From positions 372,001 to 436,000 of the forward strand of contig NZ_JBANDL010000002.1 in the NCBI RefSeq assembly GCF_037027445.1: a DNA stretch of 64,000 bases, given 5' to 3'. Below the pieces are notes generated by a model. That model worked only from the letters and a program-made list of their open reading frames with translations, did no database searches and was not told the DNA's origin. Of this stretch, positions 13,469 to 19,611 are shown piece after piece. The stretch's first letter is position 1; each line of letters opens with the position of its first letter. The position numbers were made by a program, and so were the translations under genes. Source of the stretch: Lysobacter firmicutimachus. Its GTDB lineage: Bacteria > Pseudomonadota > Gammaproteobacteria > Xanthomonadales > Xanthomonadaceae.

Positions 13469-13801
13469 ATGCGCCTCGCCCTGACCATCGTCGCCGCCGA
13501 CGGCGCCGAACTGCCTGCCGGCAGTTCGGTCAGCGTGCAATTGCGCGACACCTCGTTCGAGGATGCGCCGGCGCGGGTGCTCGACGAATGGGCGCAGACC
13601 GTGCCCGAGCACGCTCAGTCGCTGCCGCTGCAGGTCGAGATCGCCGACGACCTGGTCGACGCCGGCGACGCCACCTGGTGGGTGCACGTCGACAGCGACG
13701 GCGACGGCCGTCTCGGCCGCGGCGATTACGTCACCATGCAGGCCTATCCGCTGCGTCCTGGCGATGCAGCGGTGACGTTGCAGGTCAAGCGGATCGGCTG
13801 A
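13469..13801 (+). CDS. YbaY/YscW-like beta-sandwich protein
   Basis: A 110-residue protein that matches the YbaY-type domain: LPAGSSVSVQLRDTSFEDAP, then VLDEWAQTVPEHAQSLPLQVEIADDLVD, then VHVDSDGDGRLGRGDYVTMQAYPL. In E. coli this domain follows a lipobox; here the ATG at 13469 starts directly in the domain, so no signal peptide is present and the protein should stay in the cytoplasm. Its 3' end overlaps the convergent ATP-grasp gene by 17 bases. Whether it takes part in that system is unknown. Confidence 0.75.
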   Translation: MRLALTIVAADGAELPAGSSVSVQLRDTSFEDAPARVLDEWAQTVPEHAQSLPLQVEIADDLVDAGDATWWVHVDSDGDGRLGRGDYVTMQAYPLRPGDAAVTLQVKRIG

Positions 13802-14756
13802 CCCCGGCCAGCCAATCGGCCACCGCGCGCGCGATCGGCTGACCGGTGCGGTGCTCGATGAACAAGAACTCGCCGGCGGTGTTGACCTCGAAGAAGTAAT
13901 ACTCGCCGTCCGGCGTGCGGCGCAGGTCGATCGCTCCGTAGACCAGGCCCAGTTTCTGCATCAGCGCGCGCAGGCGCTCGCGCACCGGCTCGGGCAGGGC
14001 GTGTTCGCGCACCTCGGCGTCGCCGAGGTTGGGGCGGAAGTCGACCGTGCCGGCCGCGGCTGCGGCGCTGCCCGGGTCGAGCTTGATTTCGGCGGCGAAC
14101 AACTGGCCGTCGACCGCGGTGACCCGTATGTCGGCGTCGGCCGGCACGAATTCCTGGAAGATCACCGGCGCCAACCGCACCGTATCCAGGTGCGGCAGGT
14201 CGCTGTCGTCGAAGCGGCGCGTCTCGCGCCAGACCGCGTGGGTGCAGGAGAAGGTCTTGTGCACCGTGGCGCCGGGGCCGCGCGCTTCGACGAAGGCGCG
14301 AACCCGTTGCGGATCGGAGCTGATCAGGGTGCGCGGGACCTTCAGGCCGAGTTCGGCGGCGATGCGCAACTGCGCCGCCTTGCGCGAAGCTGCGTCGTCG
14401 CGGCCGGGGTCGTTCATCCAGCGCGCATCGCCGAGCAGGCGCCACAGCCCGTTCAGGGCCTCGTTCCATTCGTTGGCGGTGAACAGGTGCGCGTTGGCGT
14501 CGGTGACGCGGGACAGGTTCGGCGCCTGCGGCCGGCGCCACCATGCCGAGCGCACCCGGTCCAGGGCGTAGTGTTCGCCGCCGGCGCGGGCGTAGTCGAT
14601 GCGCGGACGCGCGCCGGCGGCGTACTCGATCGAGAGCGTGGCGCGATCGGGCAGCTCGGCCAGATCGAACAACAGCACCGGCTGGTCCATCGACTGCAAG
14701 TGTTCGACCACGCGCCGGGCGTGGATGTCCTCGTCGTGCGATATCACCAGGATCAC
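13785..14756 (-). CDS. MvdC/MvdD-type ATP-grasp ligase (graspetide-like macrocyclase)
   Basis: A 323-residue ATP-grasp enzyme of the family that makes omega-ester and omega-amide crosslinks in microviridin-type graspetides. Family signs: an N-terminal ILVISHDEDIHARRVVEHL strand-helix, the WWRRPQAP segment, the lid VHKTFSCTHAVW, IFQEFVPADADIRVTAVDG for the ATP-binding core, and a C-terminus YYFFEVNTAGEFLFIEHRTGQPIA, very characteristic of graspetide ligases. It starts with GTG at 14756 behind a strong AAGGAGG. It lies 21 bases downstream of the metalloprotease gene on the same strand, so they form an operon. No free precursor peptide gene is seen nearby; the protease repeats are the obvious candidate substrate (inference). 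Confidence 0.88.
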   Translation of the reverse strand: MILVISHDEDIHARRVVEHLQSMDQPVLLFDLAELPDRATLSIEYAAGARPRIDYARAGGEHYALDRVRSAWWRRPQAPNLSRVTDANAHLFTANEWNEALNGLWRLLGDARWMNDPGRDDAASRKAAQLRIAAELGLKVPRTLISSDPQRVRAFVEARGPGATVHKTFSCTHAVWRETRRFDDSDLPHLDTVRLAPVIFQEFVPADADIRVTAVDGQLFAAEIKLDPGSAAAAAGTVDFRPNLGDAEVREHALPEPVRERLRALMQKLGLVYGAIDLRRTPDGEYYFFEVNTAGEFLFIEHRTGQPIARAVADWLAGVSRSA

Positions 14757-14777
14757 GGCACGTCCTCCTTGCGGGTT

Positions 14778-16136
14778 TCAGCCGTTGCCGCCGGCGGATT
14801 GGGCGATCTGCGCCAGCAGCGCCGCGGTTTCGTCGTACTGGGCCTGCAACGCGGCGCGCGCGGCGTCGGCGCGGGCCAGCTCTTCGGCCAGCTGCTGCAG
14901 CTGGGCGTCGAGCGCGGCAACGGTGTCGGCGATCTCCTGCTCGCCGGCGCCGCCGTCGCCGGCCGGCAGCGCGCCCGCGCCGGTGGCGATCGCGAACGGC
15001 ACCGCGCCGCGCGCGCCGCCCGGCAGGGCCGGATTGATCACCGCGCCGCGCCCGGGCGTGGTCAGGTTCTCGGCCAGGGTCGGGCCCGGGTCGAACACGC
15101 CTTCCTTGCGCGTATCGGCGATCTGCTCCTTGACCGTGTCGCTGATGATGTCCTTGCGCAGTTCCTTGAGCGTGTCCAGCGGGGCTTCCTTGATCTTCTC
15201 CTTCAGCGTATCCAGCGGCGCTTCCTTGACCTTCTCCTTGAGCGTGTCCAGCGGCGCTTCCTTGGTCTTTTCCTTCAGCGTATCCAGCGGCGCCTCCTTG
15301 AGCGTCTCCTTGATCGTGACCAGCGGGCAGAACGAGTTGACCGCGGCGATGTCGCCGGGCGACAGGCCGTTGCGCTGGCCGATCACCGTGCCCGGCGGCA
15401 CCGCGCCGATCGGCACGATGGTGTCCAGGCCGTTGGACGAGAACGCGTTGCGCGGGTAGTGCATGATCGAGCCGTAGTCGTAGCCGCCGATGTCGTCGCC
15501 GTCGCTGATGTGCTGGTTGAAGTTGTGCTCGAAGCCGGAGGTGATGTTGGCCCATTCGATGCGCACGAACGAGTCGCGGTCCTCGCGGCTTTGCTCGTGC
15601 CACAGGCCGACCACGTGGCCGATCTCGTGGATGGTGTTGCCGAGGGTGCAGCCGGGCGCAAGGTTGACGAACTGCTGGCCGCCGCGCCGGCCGACCTGGG
15701 CCGAGCAACCGCTGCCGGGACGGAAAGTGACGTAGTCGGCTTCGCTGGTGCGCAGCACGAAACGGAAGCGCGTGTTGGCCTCCCAGTGCGCGATGGCGTC
15801 GGTGACGCGGGCTTGGTTCGGCAGCGCCGGATCGATGGTGTAGGGGATCTTGCAGCCCGGCCAGCGGAACTGCGAGCCGCTGATCGCCACCGCCATCGCC
15901 ACGCCGCCGGCGGCCTCGGCGCGCAGCATCTCGGACGTGGCTTCGACTTCCTCGACCGTGCCCAGGACGATGTCGCCTTCGAACATCGCCATGCCGTCGA
16001 TTTCGACGTATTGCACGGCCTTGGCGCGGAAGGTCTCGCCGCGGATCAGCGCGGTGCGGACCGGGCCGCCGCCGCGGAATTCGCCTTGCTTGGGCGGGCG
16101 GGTGTTGTCGTCGTCGTTGCCTTTGCGGGTGGCCAT
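14778..16136 (-). CDS. Astacin-like (M12A) metalloprotease with Lys/Glu repeat tail
   Basis: 452 residues from ATG 16136 (AGGAGAG just upstream). Residues 1-90 look like a propeptide and there is no signal peptide. The catalytic domain carries the zinc site HEIGHVVGLWHE at about 170-181 and the Met-turn SIMHYP at about 223-228, with four Cys (95, 144, 163, 270) able to form two disulphides. From about residue 273 comes a repeat zone: four 12-residue units of DTLKEKxKEAPL type followed by weaker DTVKE and DTRKE units. Then FDPGPTLAENL, a Gly/Ala-rich linker and a C-terminal coiled coil (ALDAQLQQLAEELARADAARAAL). The gene is followed by an ATP-grasp ligase, which suggests that the repeat zone is crosslinked. 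Protease assignment is firm; modification is inference. Confidence 0.88.
   Translation of the reverse strand: MATRKGNDDDNTRPPKQGEFRGGGPVRTALIRGETFRAKAVQYVEIDGMAMFEGDIVLGTVEEVEATSEMLRAEAAGGVAMAVAISGSQFRWPGCKIPYTIDPALPNQARVTDAIAHWEANTRFRFVLRTSEADYVTFRPGSGCSAQVGRRGGQQFVNLAPGCTLGNTIHEIGHVVGLWHEQSREDRDSFVRIEWANITSGFEHNFNQHISDGDDIGGYDYGSIMHYPRNAFSSNGLDTIVPIGAVPPGTVIGQRNGLSPGDIAAVNSFCPLVTIKETLKEAPLDTLKEKTKEAPLDTLKEKVKEAPLDTLKEKIKEAPLDTLKELRKDIISDTVKEQIADTRKEGVFDPGPTLAENLTTPGRGAVINPALPGGARGAVPFAIATGAGALPAGDGGAGEQEIADTVAALDAQLQQLAEELARADAARAALQAQYDETAALLAQIAQSAGGNG
15165..15308 (-). repeat. Four 36-bp tandem repeats coding the DTLKE array
   Basis: Four head-to-tail 36-base units (15165-15200, 15201-15236, 15237-15272, 15273-15308) without insertions. 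Each encodes 12 residues ending or starting at Asp-Thr-Leu-Lys-Glu, with only the residue before the second Lys varying (Thr, Val, Ile). The DNA copies are not identical: synonymous changes such as GTGTCC/GTATCC alternate, so the peptide and not the DNA appears to be conserved. Confidence 0.9.
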
Positions 16137-16522: not shown

Positions 16523-17185
16523 TCAGCGGCCGCAGGTGCTTTCGGTGACGATGCGCTGGATGCGCGCGACTTCGGCCTGCGAGGCGTCGCGGCTTTCGCT
16601 GCGGCCGAAGCGCAGCGCCGACTCGGCTTCGCGCAGGCGTTGTTTCCAGTTCTCGCACAGGCTCTGGTCGGGAATGCGCTGGCACTGGTCGGTCACCATC
16701 TGGCAGGCCACGCCGGCGCCGCTGGCATTGGTGCCCAGGCCGGTGGTCTGCAGCGGCGCGCAGCGCTGCGGCGGATTGCCGTCGTCGCTGAGGTAGCGGC
16801 CGTTGTCGTAGGTGCGGCATTCGAACAGCACCGGCGGCGGCAGCCGGTCGGCGTCGGCGATCGCCGGTGCCGGCGGCTTGGGCGCGGCCGGCCTGGCCAG
16901 CGGCTTGGTCACCGAGGGCAGCTGCGAGGACACCGGCGGATGCGGCGACGGGTTGGCCTGCGGAATCGGCGCCACCGGCGAGGTGATGAAGGTCGGCGGC
17001 GCCGACGAACTCGGCGCGGACTCGATCACCCGCTTCTCCTGCAGGCTGCCCTTGGGGCAGGGCGTGTCGTTCTGCACCGTCAGCTGGCCGAGCGCATCGG
17101 TGCAGCGGTAGATCGTGACCTTGCCTTGCGCGGCAACGCCGGCGCTGGCCAGCAACAGGACGGGCAGGGACCACCACACTCGCAT
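16523..17185 (-). CDS. DUF4124 domain exported protein
   Basis: A 220-residue protein with a signal peptide (SLPVLLLASAGVAAQG) followed at once by the DUF4124 motif VTIYRCTDALGQLTVQNDTPC. Pro-rich linker at about 60-118, then a Cys-containing C-terminal part (FECRTYDNGRYLSDDGNPPQRC) also found in the upstream gene. It is paralogous to that gene, whose TGA overlaps this ATG by one base, so the pair is co-translated. It probably acts in the periplasm; function unknown. Confidence 0.82.
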   Translation of the reverse strand: MRVWWSLPVLLLASAGVAAQGKVTIYRCTDALGQLTVQNDTPCPKGSLQEKRVIESAPSSSAPPTFITSPVAPIPQANPSPHPPVSSQLPSVTKPLARPAAPKPPAPAIADADRLPPPVLFECRTYDNGRYLSDDGNPPQRCAPLQTTGLGTNASGAGVACQMVTDQCQRIPDQSLCENWKQRLREAESALRFGRSESRDASQAEVARIQRIVTESTCGR

Positions 17186-17880
17186 CAGTACGCTCCGCAA
17201 TCGGTATTCAGGCGCGCGTCGATGCCGCGCTGTTGTTCGACGATCTGCGCGCGCTCGCTTTGCAACGCGCTGTTGTAACGCCGGTCGAGCTGGTAGCGGC
17301 GATCGCGCAGGCGCGCGCAGACTTCCTGCTGCGGCAGCGCGTGGCATTCGTCGCGGACCAGGGTGTTGCCGCCGTAGAGCACGCCGTAGCCGCGGCCGTC
17401 GCGCGGCAGGCGCGCGTCGGGGTCGCCCAGCCGCGGCGGCGGCGCGCCGACCCGGTCGCCGAGCGGGTTGCGCGGCAGGTAGGCCGGATAGCCCAGCGAC
17501 CACAGCGGCAGCCAGCGCGGATTGCCCTCGGAGGTGTCGCTGGTATAGCGCTCGCCGTCGGGGGTGACGCATTCGTACATCGGGCGCGGCGGCTGCACCA
17601 CCACCACCCGCGGCCGCGGGGCGGCGGCCGGCGTGGGCGCCGGCGCGGCAGGCGCATCCGTGGCCGGCGTCGGGCGCGGCGGCGGGTCGACCGGGCGCAG
17701 CATGGTCTGGGTCTGCTGGCGCTGGCCGGCGGCGCAGGGCGTGTCGCGCAGGGTCAACCGGCCCTGCGCGTCGGTGCAGCGGTAGATCACCACCTCGGCC
17801 GCGCCGGCCGACGCCGCGAGGCAGCACAGCGCGAGCGCGGTGAGCGAGCGAGAGCGAAGCAGGGCGCGGCGGCAGAACAT
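17185..17880 (-). CDS. DUF4124 domain exported protein (paralogue)
   Basis: A 231-residue protein with a signal peptide (LTALALCCLAASAGAAE) and the DUF4124 motif VVIYRCTDAQGRLTLRDTPC. A Pro/Ala-rich linker leads to MYECVTPDGERYTSDTSEGNPRWLPLW, related to the downstream paralogue, and an Arg-rich helical C-terminus. It overlaps the next gene by one base (TGATG). Its start lies 80 bases after the tsaC stop, so it could be read through from tsaC or have its own promoter. Confidence 0.82.
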   Translation of the reverse strand: MFCRRALLRSRSLTALALCCLAASAGAAEVVIYRCTDAQGRLTLRDTPCAAGQRQQTQTMLRPVDPPPRPTPATDAPAAPAPTPAAAPRPRVVVVQPPRPMYECVTPDGERYTSDTSEGNPRWLPLWSLGYPAYLPRNPLGDRVGAPPPRLGDPDARLPRDGRGYGVLYGGNTLVRDECHALPQQEVCARLRDRRYQLDRRYNSALQSERAQIVEQQRGIDARLNTDCGAY

Positions 17881-17960
17881 GCGCGCATCTTGCGCCAGCC
17901 GCGCGCAGGACGAAAGCGCCGCTGCAGTCCGGCGCGTCGGCGCTGGCCGCTTCTGCGGAT

Positions 17961-18527
17961 TCAGGCGCGCAGCACTTCGCCGGTGAGCGCGACCCGGATC
18001 GGGGTCGGCGCGGCCAGCCCGCCGGTTTCGCCGGCGCAGACGCCGTCGCTGAGCGCGATCACCGCCGGATCGAGTTCGCCGCGGCGGAACGCCGGCGGCT
18101 GCCCGCTGAGGTTGGCGCTGGTGGATACCAAGGGCTGCGCACAGGCTTCGCACAGGGCGCGCGCCTGCGCATGCGCGGTCACGCGCACGGCGACGCTGGC
18201 GTGCGCGCCGCGGATCCAGGCCGGCACCGCTGCGGTCGCCGGCACCGCCCAGGTATTCGGTCCCGGCCAGCTGGCCAGTACCGCCTCGCGCCGCGTCGCC
18301 GGCAAGGCGTCCCAATCGACCCAGCCGGCGAGTTGGGCCAAGTCCGCGGCGATGAGGATCACGCCCTTGTCGGCCGACCGTTGCTTGATCGCCAGCAGAC
18401 GCCGCACCGCGGCTTCGTCGTGCGGGTCGCAGCCGATGCCCCACACCGCCTCGGTCGGATAGATCACCACGCCGCCGCGGCGCAGCGCGGCGGCGGCGGC
18501 GGGAACAGAGAGGTCGGCGACGGTCAT
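17961..18527 (-). CDS. tsaC: L-threonylcarbamoyladenylate synthase TsaC (Sua5/YrdC family)
   Basis: A 188-residue YrdC-fold enzyme that makes threonylcarbamoyl-AMP from Thr, bicarbonate and ATP, the first step of t6A tRNA modification at position 37. Motifs: GGVVIYPTEAVWGIGCDP for nucleotide binding, the KQRSADKG loop, SWPGPNTWAVPA, VAVRVTAH, and PLVSTSANLSGQPP. Length matches the single-domain TsaC form, not the longer Sua5. The start at 18527 has GGAG about 9 bases upstream. Confidence 0.95.
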   Translation of the reverse strand: MTVADLSVPAAAAALRRGGVVIYPTEAVWGIGCDPHDEAAVRRLLAIKQRSADKGVILIAADLAQLAGWVDWDALPATRREAVLASWPGPNTWAVPATAAVPAWIRGAHASVAVRVTAHAQARALCEACAQPLVSTSANLSGQPPAFRRGELDPAVIALSDGVCAGETGGLAAPTPIRVALTGEVLRA

Positions 18528-18606: not shown

Positions 18607-19611
18607 TCAATGGCCGTGGTGGGCGTGCCCGGCCGGACGCGCCGACAGCGGCAGGCGCACGTCAATGGCGTGCGAACGGTTGCCGTCCAGCCAGACGTGG
18701 TTGCCGGCCAGGCCGGAACGAGCCTGGAAACGGCCTGCGTCGAGCGGTTCGCCGATGCGCGCGTAGCGCGAGCGGCGGTTGACCTCTTCGCCGAGCCGGC
18801 GCGGCCAGTCGGCGACCGAGGTTTCGCCGGCGCGCAGCACGGTCTCGATCTTCTCCGCATCGCTGCCGTCGGCGTTGAACACGCGCAGGGTCACCGTGGT
18901 GCCGACCGGATAGTCGTTGGCCACGGCGAGGTTGCCGGCGTCCTTCCAACGCGCGTCCTGCGCGGCCAGCGCGTTGGTGAAGTTGACGTCCATGCAGGTG
19001 TAGAAGGCCTCGGTCGAGTCAGAGCGCTGCCAGATGTTGTAGATCACATGGCGGCCGCTGCGCGCCGGCAGGGTGCAGGTGATGTGGTAGTTGTTGCCGC
19101 TGGACAGCGGCACGCGCGCGCTCTTGCAGAACTGCTGCAGGTCGGCCCAGCGCAACGGCGAGGCCGGGTTCCAGCCCTGCCGGGTCACGTAGAAGGTCCA
19201 GTCCTTGGTCGCGTGCGGCGCGGTGGCGTAGAAACTGAAGGTGTAGCTGGCGCCGGAACGCAGGGTGGTGGTCTGCCAGTCGCTGCGGACCACGTCGAGG
19301 CCGCGGAAGGTCGGGTTGCCGCCGCTGCACAGTTTGCCGTCGGGCACCACCGCCTGGTGGTTGCTGTTGGCGTTGGCCTGGTTGATGCCGTTCCAGTCGT
19401 AGAACAACTGCGAACCGGCGACTTCCCAGGCGGCGCGGCAGGCCGGGTCGGCGGGGTTTTCCTTGTTGCCGAGGTAGCACTTGTAGATGCGGCTTTGCGG
19501 GTTGACGAAGCTGCCGTGGGCCCAGGCCGCGGACAACGGCAGACCGGCGGCGCACAACGCGGCCGCGGTGGAGAGTAGGGACAGGCGAAGAGACGAGGAC
19601 GTAGCGGACAT
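18607..19611 (-). CDS. Lytic polysaccharide monooxygenase, AA10 family, GbpA-like
   Basis: A secreted copper enzyme of 334 residues that oxidatively cleaves chitin (or cellulose). The signal peptide ends in LSAAWA and exposes the N-terminal His in HGSFVNPQSR, half of the copper histidine brace; the second His is in TAPHATKDWTFYVTRQGWNP. The buried aromatic is in AFYTCMDVNF. After about residue 210 comes a second domain (YPVGTTVTLRVFNADGSDAEKIE) resembling GbpA domain 2. The His-rich tail HAHHGH could bind metal. Start 19611 is preceded by AGGAG. Confidence 0.94.
   Translation of the reverse strand: MSATSSSLRLSLLSTAAALCAAGLPLSAAWAHGSFVNPQSRIYKCYLGNKENPADPACRAAWEVAGSQLFYDWNGINQANANSNHQAVVPDGKLCSGGNPTFRGLDVVRSDWQTTTLRSGASYTFSFYATAPHATKDWTFYVTRQGWNPASPLRWADLQQFCKSARVPLSSGNNYHITCTLPARSGRHVIYNIWQRSDSTEAFYTCMDVNFTNALAAQDARWKDAGNLAVANDYPVGTTVTLRVFNADGSDAEKIETVLRAGETSVADWPRRLGEEVNRRSRYARIGEPLDAGRFQARSGLAGNHVWLDGNRSHAIDVRLPLSARPAGHAHHGH

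What the first reader, a model, noticed from the sequence alone, without database searches (positions are those of the whole stretch)
13785..16136. Graspetide-like ATP-grasp ligase paired with a metalloprotease: a possible new enzyme-tail crosslinking system
The ligase has strong hallmarks of the MvdC/MvdD family, which makes ester or amide crosslinks between Thr/Ser/Lys and Asp/Glu side chains of ribosomal peptides. Its operon partner, 21 bases upstream, is not a short precursor peptide but an intact astacin-type protease carrying a regular array of DTLKE repeats. These repeats supply the donor (Thr, Lys) and acceptor (Asp, Glu) residues such ligases need. The simplest reading is that the ligase staples the tail of the protease, perhaps to rigidify or protect it, to control activation, or to release a cyclic product. 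I know of no characterised example of this architecture.
Basis: partly seen in the sequence, partly recalled or inferred. Interest (0 to 1): 0.88.

Follow-up and report, generated by a model that had tools for sequence, protein, structure and literature searches.

The report
Protease tail as peptide-crosslinking-ligase substrate
Some bacteria make a zinc protease whose long repetitive tail looks like the built-in substrate of the crosslinking enzyme encoded next to it, which could explain why earlier surveys saw such enzymes beside proteases without finding what they act on.

Summary
In detail: a 452-aa astacin (M12A) ends in a repeat tail and is followed, 21 bases on, by an MvdC/MvdD-type ATP-grasp ligase. 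The pairing is not strain-specific: I read it in 14 genomes of two phyla, with two zinc-protease families, astacin and M43 (ulilysin-like). The tail is more regular than reported: 19 consecutive tetrads end in Asp/Glu, and this lattice recurs in 11 of 13 tails compared. All 13 carry PF[AV][ILVM]x[TG] 66-87 residues from the C-terminus, resembling the N-terminal motif of ordinary graspetide leaders. Eleven related proteases without a ligase nearby lack lattice and motif, though two Rhizobium ones have a looser PFARAT. Tailed ligases group together in a tree (78/92). Best reading: the protease is itself the graspetide precursor, with core repeats and a natural C-terminal leader. Makarova 2022 and Carter 2026 saw proteases beside such ligases but, in what I read, not the tails. 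Crosslinks are inferred, not shown; whether the tail stays attached or is released is open.

The parts
14778..16136 (-). Astacin-type (M12A) zinc metalloprotease with C-terminal substrate-like tail, 452 aa
   Evidence: ORF; Pfam Astacin 161.9 bits; NCBIfam LegP model 303.7 bits against cut-off 300, residues 26-270 only
15333..15866 (-). Astacin catalytic domain (residues 91-268); HEIGHVVGLWHE at 170-181, SIMHY Met-turn at 223-227
   Evidence: invariant residues in alignment A5
15090..15317 (-). Predicted core: 19 tetrads (residues 274-349), every fourth residue D or E, rich in K and T; holds six DTxKE motifs
14781..14999 (-). Predicted C-terminal leader (follower), residues 380-452
   Evidence: alignment A3; comparison with the M43 followers
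14982..14999 (-). PFAIAT motif (residues 380-385), leader-like recognition motif
   Evidence: compare the Phhx(1,2)h leader motif in PMC8939145 (passages) and RPFG in PMC13003496 (passages)
14793..14945 (-). Predicted C-terminal helix (residues 398-448)
   Evidence: AlphaFold model of low quality; this helix is its best part, pLDDT about 55-77 in blocks of ten
14764..14770 (-). AAGGAGG, likely ribosome-binding site of the ligase in the 21-base gap
13785..14756 (-). ATP-grasp ligase of MvdC/MvdD type, 323 aa; R74, K167, R211, R241 and D277 invariant in the 42 ligases of alignment A7, E290 and N292 in at least 90%
13469..13801 (+). Convergent YscW/YbaY-like small protein, 110 aa; seems to be a partner of the protease rather than of the ligase
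   Evidence: Pfam YscW PF09619 27.1 bits against 22.6; similar genes beside three relatives

Best explanation
The protease is itself the graspetide precursor. Its C-terminus is a substrate cassette: a core lattice of tetrads (x-x-K-D/E, with Thr in the Xanthomonadaceae form), then a linker, then a PFxxxT motif and a helix that act as a natural C-terminal leader. The ATP-grasp ligase, made from the next gene, binds the follower, activates Asp/Glu side chains with ATP and joins them to nearby Lys or Thr side chains, making a ladder of small lactam or lactone rings along the tail. The cassette goes with the ligase and is found on two zinc-protease families. I think the modified tail most likely stays on the enzyme as a compact, protease-proof rod, which would keep an active endopeptidase from eating its own acid-rich tail and could position or restrain it. 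SHOWN: gene order, lattice, motif, co-occurrence, tree. INFERRED: that bonds form, which pairs are joined, that PFxxxT is the docking site, and the role of the rod.
For: (1) Co-occurrence: of the window's genome and 18 genus relatives, the same four (G000, G005, G008, G017) give strong hits to both protease and ligase; no other of the 18 has a hit of that strength to either. (3) Two protease families, Astacin and M43, carry the same kind of tail. (4) Lattice: D/E in one phase of 4 in 19/19, 19/19, 13/13, 13/13, 14/14, 14/14 (astacin) and 23/23, 30/30, 31/31, 42/42, 35/35 (M43) acids. In 2383 ORFs (all frames, overlapping loci) runs of 9 or more occur only in these proteases, apart from one intergenic 12-bp repeat, L008. 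(5) PF[AV][ILVM]x[TG] lies 66-87 residues from the end in 13 of 13 tails while the stretch before it varies from 81 to 223 residues. (6) Eleven related proteases without a ligase in the stretch held around them (tblastn) lack the lattice and the strict motif: M43 of Priestia, two Rhizobium, Nonomuraea, Azospirillum and G1191; astacins of Pararhizobium, Sinorhizobium, Thermus, G054 and G005's paralogue. (7) Tailed ligases are one side of a branch (78/92; 80% of 200 bootstrap trees; 0 of 500 shuffles). (8) In core columns D, E, K and T are kept more often (14/18, 14/18, 18/26, 14/23) than other residues (26/68) between three lineages; between close relatives the core is under purifying selection (ratios 0.22 and 0.14). 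(9) G1149 encodes protease, tail and ligase as one 956-aa frame. (10) Solved relatives of the ligase include AMdnB and CdnC (7m4s, 7mgv) and 5ig8, 5ig9, 7drm, which I recall as graspetide synthetases. A leader moved to the C-terminus still works in ThfA, and RPFG is its recognition sequence (PMC13003496, abstract and passages).
Against: No bond has been seen; everything is sequence comparison. Two of 13 tails (G535: 6 of 17 acids in phase; Burkholderia: 2 of 8) do not follow the tetrad lattice, though they are repeats of T/K and D/E. The PF pattern was written after seeing the tails, so its shuffle values (0.0003-0.0054 per tail) are not independent tests. Two of the 11 control proteases (both Rhizobium M43, no ligase within 3.5 kb) have PFARAT 25 residues from the end, so a PF motif alone does not mark a ligase partner. 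The follower comparison between protease families is modest (probability 78%, P 1.9e-5, 34 columns) and both sides were cut at the PF, which helps it. The ligase falls below all NCBIfam cut-offs. AlphaFold gave no docking: in the natural fusion the ligase is well modelled but the tail and the PF segment have pLDDT under 50, and the astacin model failed (mean 35.9). The clade support of 78/92 is below the tree tool's star. Over larger distances the core changes fast (ratio 0.54 against 0.26 for the catalytic domain to G005, 0.93 against 0.32 to Pseudoxanthomonas). One of the 15 ligases of this kind seen (the second copy in G1149) has no protease beside it.
Confidence: 0.7

Rival explanations
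1. The tail is the substrate, but the product is a free peptide. The attached protease acts as its own maturation protease, cuts off the crosslinked tail in cis, and the released graspetide is the active compound.
For: Many graspetide clusters lack an identifiable protease (PMC13039773, passages); here one is joined to the precursor. The catalytic residues are intact. Many modified units in one precursor are known (corallotide, PMC13097080, section read).
Against: By eye I saw no exporter among the ORFs next to the pairs that I read, but I did not search for one. The leader-like follower lies at the far end, so one cut would leave it on the peptide. The stretch before it varies from 81 to 223 residues, more like a structural rod than a bioactive peptide.
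Confidence: 0.25
2. The ligase works on another precursor encoded elsewhere, and the protease is a maturation or resistance enzyme; its tail is an unmodified charged linker. This is the reading in Makarova 2022 (peptidases supply peptides) and Carter 2026 (maturation or resistance).
For: Published view for ATP-grasp branches 7 and 8 and for group 32 (passages and a section). The genome has two further ATP-grasp relatives. PFARAT occurs in two proteases with no ligase nearby.
Against: It does not explain why the repeat tail is present with the ligase and the lattice absent without it, why K/T and D/E are kept in register, why both protease types carry a leader-like PF segment, or the single-frame fusion.
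Confidence: 0.16
3. The ligase is RimK-like in outcome: it adds amino acids (for example glutamate) to the tail's acids instead of crosslinking them.
For: RimK-like ATP-grasp domain (PF08443, 25.9 bits) and weak rimK_fam match; RimK is also among its more distant solved relatives.
Against: The MvdD pre-ATP-grasp domain and the best solved relatives (AMdnB, CdnC) point to side-chain crosslinking enzymes. Lys or Thr is held in fixed register with the acids, which simple addition would not need.
Confidence: 0.06

Closest known systems
Graspetides (microviridin, plesiocin, fuscimiditide and others) with MvdC/MvdD-type synthetases
   Same: Same synthetase superfamily with residues invariant across 42 relatives; substrate rich in Thr/Lys and Asp/Glu; PF-type motif as in the leaders QPFALNYARP, QPFVLKS and LPFFARFL of relatives
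   Different: Precursor is a whole zinc protease of 419-609 aa with intact active-site residues; the recognition segment lies C-terminal to the core; in 11 of 13 the core is a tetrad lattice with 13 to 42 acids
Corallotide (graspetide group 15, Corallococcus)
   Same: Long precursor (about 22 kDa) with five KxxxD units, each closed by a TIGR04187 enzyme as a Lys-Asp isopeptide (PMC13097080, section read)
   Different: Stand-alone precursor with an N-terminal helical domain, plus hydroxylase and beta-lactamase; no protease domain
Makarova 2022 ATP-grasp branches 7 and 8 (PMC8939145, passages)
   Same: ATP-grasp genes beside peptidases of unrelated families with no precursor found; branch 7 often with a YscW homologue, as in the window
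   Different: They suggested a precursor elsewhere; here the peptidase tail is proposed to be the precursor. Whether the window's ligase lies in branch 7 could not be checked
Carter 2026 graspetide group 32 (PMC13097080)
   Same: Diverse families of neighbouring proteases
   Different: Proteases read as maturation or resistance enzymes; a tail substrate is not mentioned in the sections and passages that I saw
ThfA with repositioned leader (PMC13003496)
   Same: Leader placed after the core still guides the synthetase; key sequence RPFG
   Different: Engineered and called unnatural there, whereas here the order core-then-leader appears natural
Ulilysin / mirolysin (M43) and astacin / LegP (M12A) proteases
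   Same: Catalytic domains
   Different: The 11 related proteases read here without a ligase nearby, and the NCBIfam LegP model, lack the lattice tail

Membership tests
Graspetide biosynthetic systems | MvdC/MvdD-type ATP-grasp synthetase with conserved ATP-grasp residues | tested here: met
   Pfam MvdD pre-ATP-grasp 36.4 bits over cut-off 27; profile matches 5ig8, 5ig9, 7m4s, 7mgv, 7drm; R74, K167, R211, R241, D277 invariant in 42 rows; that these are catalytic residues is recalled from the fold family
Graspetide biosynthetic systems | Named NCBIfam family (MvdC, MvdD, SAV_5884) | tested here: not met
   161-236 bits against cut-offs 350-475
Graspetide biosynthetic systems | Adjacent precursor with donor (Ser/Thr/Lys) and acceptor (Asp/Glu) residues in repeating register | tested here: met
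   but it is the tail of a protease
Graspetide biosynthetic systems | Short stand-alone precursor with N-terminal leader | tested here: not met
   Immediate upstream neighbour is the protease; the motif lies C-terminal to the core
Graspetide biosynthetic systems | Side-chain ester or amide crosslinks in the product | not testable with these tools
   Needs mass spectrometry
Astacin (M12A) proteases | HExxHxxGxxHE zinc site, SIMHY Met-turn and family profile | tested here: met
LegP (NCBIfam NF045530) | Score over the curated cut-off | tested here: met
   303.7 against 300, residues 26-270 only; effector status of the window protein not testable, Legionella LegP not fetched
Makarova 2022 ATP-grasp branch 7 | Peptidase neighbour, no short precursor beside it, YscW homologue in the locus | tested here: met
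   passages of PMC8939145; the paper says 'often' for YscW, so this is a likeness, not proof
Makarova 2022 ATP-grasp branch 7 | Position in that paper's ATP-grasp tree | not tested
Carter 2026 graspetide group 32 | Position in that paper's similarity network | not testable with these tools
   Only main-text sections and passages available

The most novel reading that the evidence does not exclude
A new kind of covalently stapled protein architecture: a substrate cassette (tetrad lattice plus natural C-terminal leader) that, together with its own ATP-grasp ligase, is attached to different zinc proteases and is turned into a ladder of about ten to forty small rings on a working enzyme. It would be the missing precursor of protease-linked graspetide synthetases.
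Probability: 0.45. Interest if true: 0.88.

Novelty: new variant of a known kind. Interest (0 to 1): 0.8.

Why it matters
Two surveys report graspetide synthetases beside proteases of diverse families; one found no precursor in such loci and suggested it lies elsewhere, the other read the proteases as maturation or resistance enzymes (passages and a section). If the precursor is the protease's own tail, that puzzle becomes testable with one co-expression experiment. It would also give a natural C-terminal leader (in the one paper I saw on this, it was engineered), a natural case of a graspetide synthetase acting on an enzyme rather than a small peptide, and a portable cassette for stapling protein tails.

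Tried and rejected
Tail of another G009 protein: two weak hits (L006, L008) to the tail in a related genome lie, by eye, in short tandem repeats read in chance frames, not in tailed proteins.

M43 as ancestral partner: the tree draws the astacin clade among M43 clades, but the data do not reject one M43 clade (p-AU 0.19), so I make no claim about which partner came first.

Tail without ligase: G1191 has an M43 protease of 697 aa and no ligase at E 1e-60; its extension has no K/D lattice and no strict PF motif, so it is not a counter-example. The two Rhizobium M43 proteins do have PFARAT near the end, without lattice and without a ligase within the 3.5 kb held; I leave this unexplained.

Counting PF leaders in ordinary precursors by script: 19 of 29 loci, but by eye several are chance ORFs. 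I count 11 of 29 rows as plausible (L046, L047, L050, L051, L052 = L013, L054, L060, L079, L081, L127), two of them one locus; L082 has RPFTLNYARP in a longer frame and was missed by the script.

Other collections: viral contigs gave none; phages gave two weak hits, not followed. The promoter and terminator scan showed nothing above its shuffles. Structure prediction: the astacin model failed; the fused protein shows a good ligase and a low-confidence, undocked tail; no fold search was run. A first script for the tail table stopped with an error and was rerun.

Controls are partial. Of 10 plasmid records with an M43 match, one is the tailed Burkholderia and I read five of the other nine; of 18 with an astacin match I read three. 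Absence of a ligase was checked by tblastn only in the stretch held around each control, 7.6-10 kb in nine and about 3.5 kb in two. The 29 ordinary ligases of the tree were picked by hand from those found. One row, HS124 / G945, was left out of the tree and of the 13-tail counts because its ligase is identical to the window's; its tail was read.
Full report
WHAT IS THERE. On the minus strand, a 452-aa protein (16136-14778) is followed after 21 bases by a 323-aa protein (14756-13785) with AAGGAGG before its start. The first is an astacin-type zinc protease (Pfam 161.9 bits, cut-off 22.5) with the zinc site and Met-turn intact. It just passes NCBIfam's LegP model (303.7 against 300), which covers residues 26-270 only. 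The second is an ATP-grasp ligase with the MvdD pre-ATP-grasp domain. Its best solved relatives are 5ig8, 5ig9, 7m4s (AMdnB), 7mgv (CdnC), 9bou and 7drm, which I recall as graspetide synthetases or close kin. It stays below the cut-offs of the named NCBIfam graspetide families. The L. antibioticus HS124 contig has a ligase 100% identical to it, so the window is from that species or very near it.

THE TAIL. After the catalytic domain come residues 274-349, which read as 19 tetrads: TIKE TLKE APLD TLKE KTKE APLD TLKE KVKE APLD TLKE KIKE APLD TLKE LRKD IISD TVKE QIAD TRKE GVFD. All 19 acids fall in one phase of four (5000 shuffles: mean 6.8, maximum 12). In the window the next longest run of acids at every fourth place, among 206 ORFs in all frames, is 4. 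Then follow a DPGPTLAEN linker, PFAIAT and a C-terminal helix (predicted at pLDDT of about 55-77 in an otherwise failed model).

IT IS NOT STRAIN-SPECIFIC. The pair, with a tail, was read in 14 genomes: the window's, G008, G005, G017 (L. antibioticus 13-6), HS124 (G945), Pseudoxanthomonas PXM03 and G1029 with astacin; Cryobacterium algoritolerans, Cryobacterium MP_M3, G1300, G1149, G535, Burkholderia stagnalis and G1558 with M43. That G017 and G945 are 13-6 and HS124 I infer from identical contig positions. M43 membership was tested by Pfam in three (PF05572), the rest by alignment; the Cryobacterium protein is closest to ulilysin (8cd8, E 9e-113). The pair is rare. Profile scores over 400 bits were found in 1 of 398 genomes sampled in the phylum (profile A1) and, with profile A2, in 2 of 396 Actinomycetota, 4 of 247 in the family, 3 of 299 in the Cryobacterium family, 1 of 42 in G535's order and 2 of 293 in the class. 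These samples overlap and include the query genomes.

TWO PROTEASE FAMILIES, ONE CASSETTE. The lattice is perfect in 11 of 13 tails (6 astacin, 5 M43; 13 to 42 acids each), with most Lys in the place just before an acid. G535 has TxxKFRDDPVG repeats and Burkholderia DxHxT / TxD repeats: not tetrads, but again Thr/Lys and Asp/Glu. All 13 have PF[AV][ILVM]x[TG] 66-87 residues from the end, whereas the stretch before it varies from 81 to 223 residues. The two sets of followers match each other at 78% probability, with the caveat that both were cut at the PF. Ordinary relatives of the ligase have short precursors, several with PF near the N-terminus (MQPFALNYARP, RRQPFVLKS, LPFFARFL). Makarova 2022 describes a Phhx(1,2)h leader motif (PMC8939145, passages), and Johnson 2026 found RPFG to be the recognition sequence of ThfA, also when the leader was moved to the C-terminus (PMC13003496, abstract and passages). 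The order core-then-leader seems to be natural here.

CONTROLS. Related proteases without the ligase end soon after the catalytic domain or have an unrelated extension: M43 of Priestia, two Rhizobium, Nonomuraea, Azospirillum and G1191; astacins of Pararhizobium, Sinorhizobium and Thermus, and of G054 and G005's own paralogue. None of the 11 has the lattice or the strict motif, and tblastn finds no ligase in the stretch held around any of them. The two Rhizobium proteins, however, have PFARAT 25 residues from the end; they may be relics, may be served by a ligase elsewhere, or may show that such a motif arises without one. The small neighbours seem to behave the other way. A protein of about 110 aa sits next to M43 with the ligase and without it (Rhizobium, Azospirillum); I judged these alike by eye, and the lipocalin match is below cut-off (17.1 against 22.4, one protein). 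A YscW/YbaY-like protein sits next to astacin with the ligase (window PF09619, 27.1 bits; Pseudoxanthomonas 21.4, just under the cut-off of 22.6; others by eye) and without it (annotated in Pararhizobium). So the small partner seems to go with the protease domain, and the tail with the ligase. In G1149 protease, tail and ligase are one 956-aa frame; a second ligase copy there stands alone.

TREE AND SELECTION. Among 42 ligases the 13 tailed ones form one side of a branch (78/92; 80% of 200 bootstrap trees; 0 of 500 shuffles). Whether M43 or astacin came first is unresolved (p-AU 0.19). Between close relatives the core evolves like the catalytic domain (nonsynonymous to synonymous ratio 0.22 against 0.25, and 0.14 against 0.11); between more distant ones it changes faster (0.54 against 0.26; 0.93 against 0.32), but D, E, K and T are kept more often than other residues.

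HOW IT LIKELY WORKS. The ligase, recruited by the follower, should join tail Asp/Glu side chains to Lys or Thr. With most Lys just before an acid and acids at every fourth place, the usual Lys-to-acid spacings are -3, +1 and +5, and for most Thr in the window -1 and +3; which are used is unknown. Corallotide shows that a TIGR04187 enzyme can close repeated Lys-Asp rings in one long precursor (PMC13097080, section read). I favour a rod that stays on the enzyme. Astacins prefer acidic residues after the cut site (recalled), so an unmodified tail would be prone to self-cleavage and crosslinking could shield it. Release of the tail as a free peptide is the main alternative.

WHAT IS KNOWN. Makarova 2022 noted that branches 7 and 8 sit beside peptidases of several unrelated families without a precursor, and that branch 7 loci often hold a YscW homologue (passages). 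Carter 2026 reports diverse neighbouring proteases in group 32 and suggests maturation or resistance (sections and passages). In the listings of eight library searches (some showed only part of their hits) I saw no paper describing a protease tail as graspetide substrate. The library holds only open-licence papers; Ramesh 2021 and Iyer 2009 were not available.

LIMITS. No chemistry; controls are partial; motif patterns were made after seeing the data; membership in branch 7 or group 32 is untested; AlphaFold did not dock the tail.

Noticed in passing
L108:2573-5443 (G1149): M43 protease, K-D tail and ligase form one 956-aa open frame; a Trp codon and about 30 further residues stand where relatives have the protease stop and the intergenic gap. 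A second ligase copy (L109:4899-5819) has no protease upstream.
   Followed up: partly
L119:3492-4577 and L122:3477-4565 (Rhizobium M43 proteases): Tail-less M43 proteins with PFARATLGDERGERPTREFDGVSWV at the end, a looser PF motif followed by a few acids and one Thr, and no ligase within 3.5 kb.
   Followed up: partly
window 13469-13801: Convergent YscW/YbaY-like gene that overlaps the end of the ligase gene by 17 bases; a YbaY family gene is annotated beside a tail-less astacin in Pararhizobium gei (L123), so it may be a partner or inhibitor of the protease.
   Followed up: partly
L044:3066-3401, L106:3111-3437, L119:4629-4958, L121:4466-4801: Small proteins of about 110 aa, alike by eye, beside M43 proteases with and without the ligase; sub-threshold lipocalin match for one. 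Perhaps an inhibitor or chaperone.
   Followed up: partly
NZ_LR134435.1 (Legionella adelaidensis plasmid, 27.5 kb): Hit lists show a LegP-type astacin and an ATP-grasp ligase of this superfamily on one small plasmid, about 8 kb apart. Not fetched.
   Followed up: no
G000:C2:669584-670363 and G000:C2:3593603-3594520: Two further ATP-grasp relatives in the window's genome, not of the tailed type by score.
   Followed up: no
L008 and L006 (G009): Short tandem repeats that encode lattice-like peptides in chance frames (for example LREA repeats in L008).
   Followed up: yes
window 16523-18444, minus strand: Two similar neighbouring ORFs upstream of the operon whose products share VxIYRCTDAxGxLT; not identified.
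   Followed up: no
window 18607-19611, minus strand: ORF whose product looks like a chitin-active AA10 lytic polysaccharide monooxygenase (recalled from sequence features, no search made).
   Followed up: no
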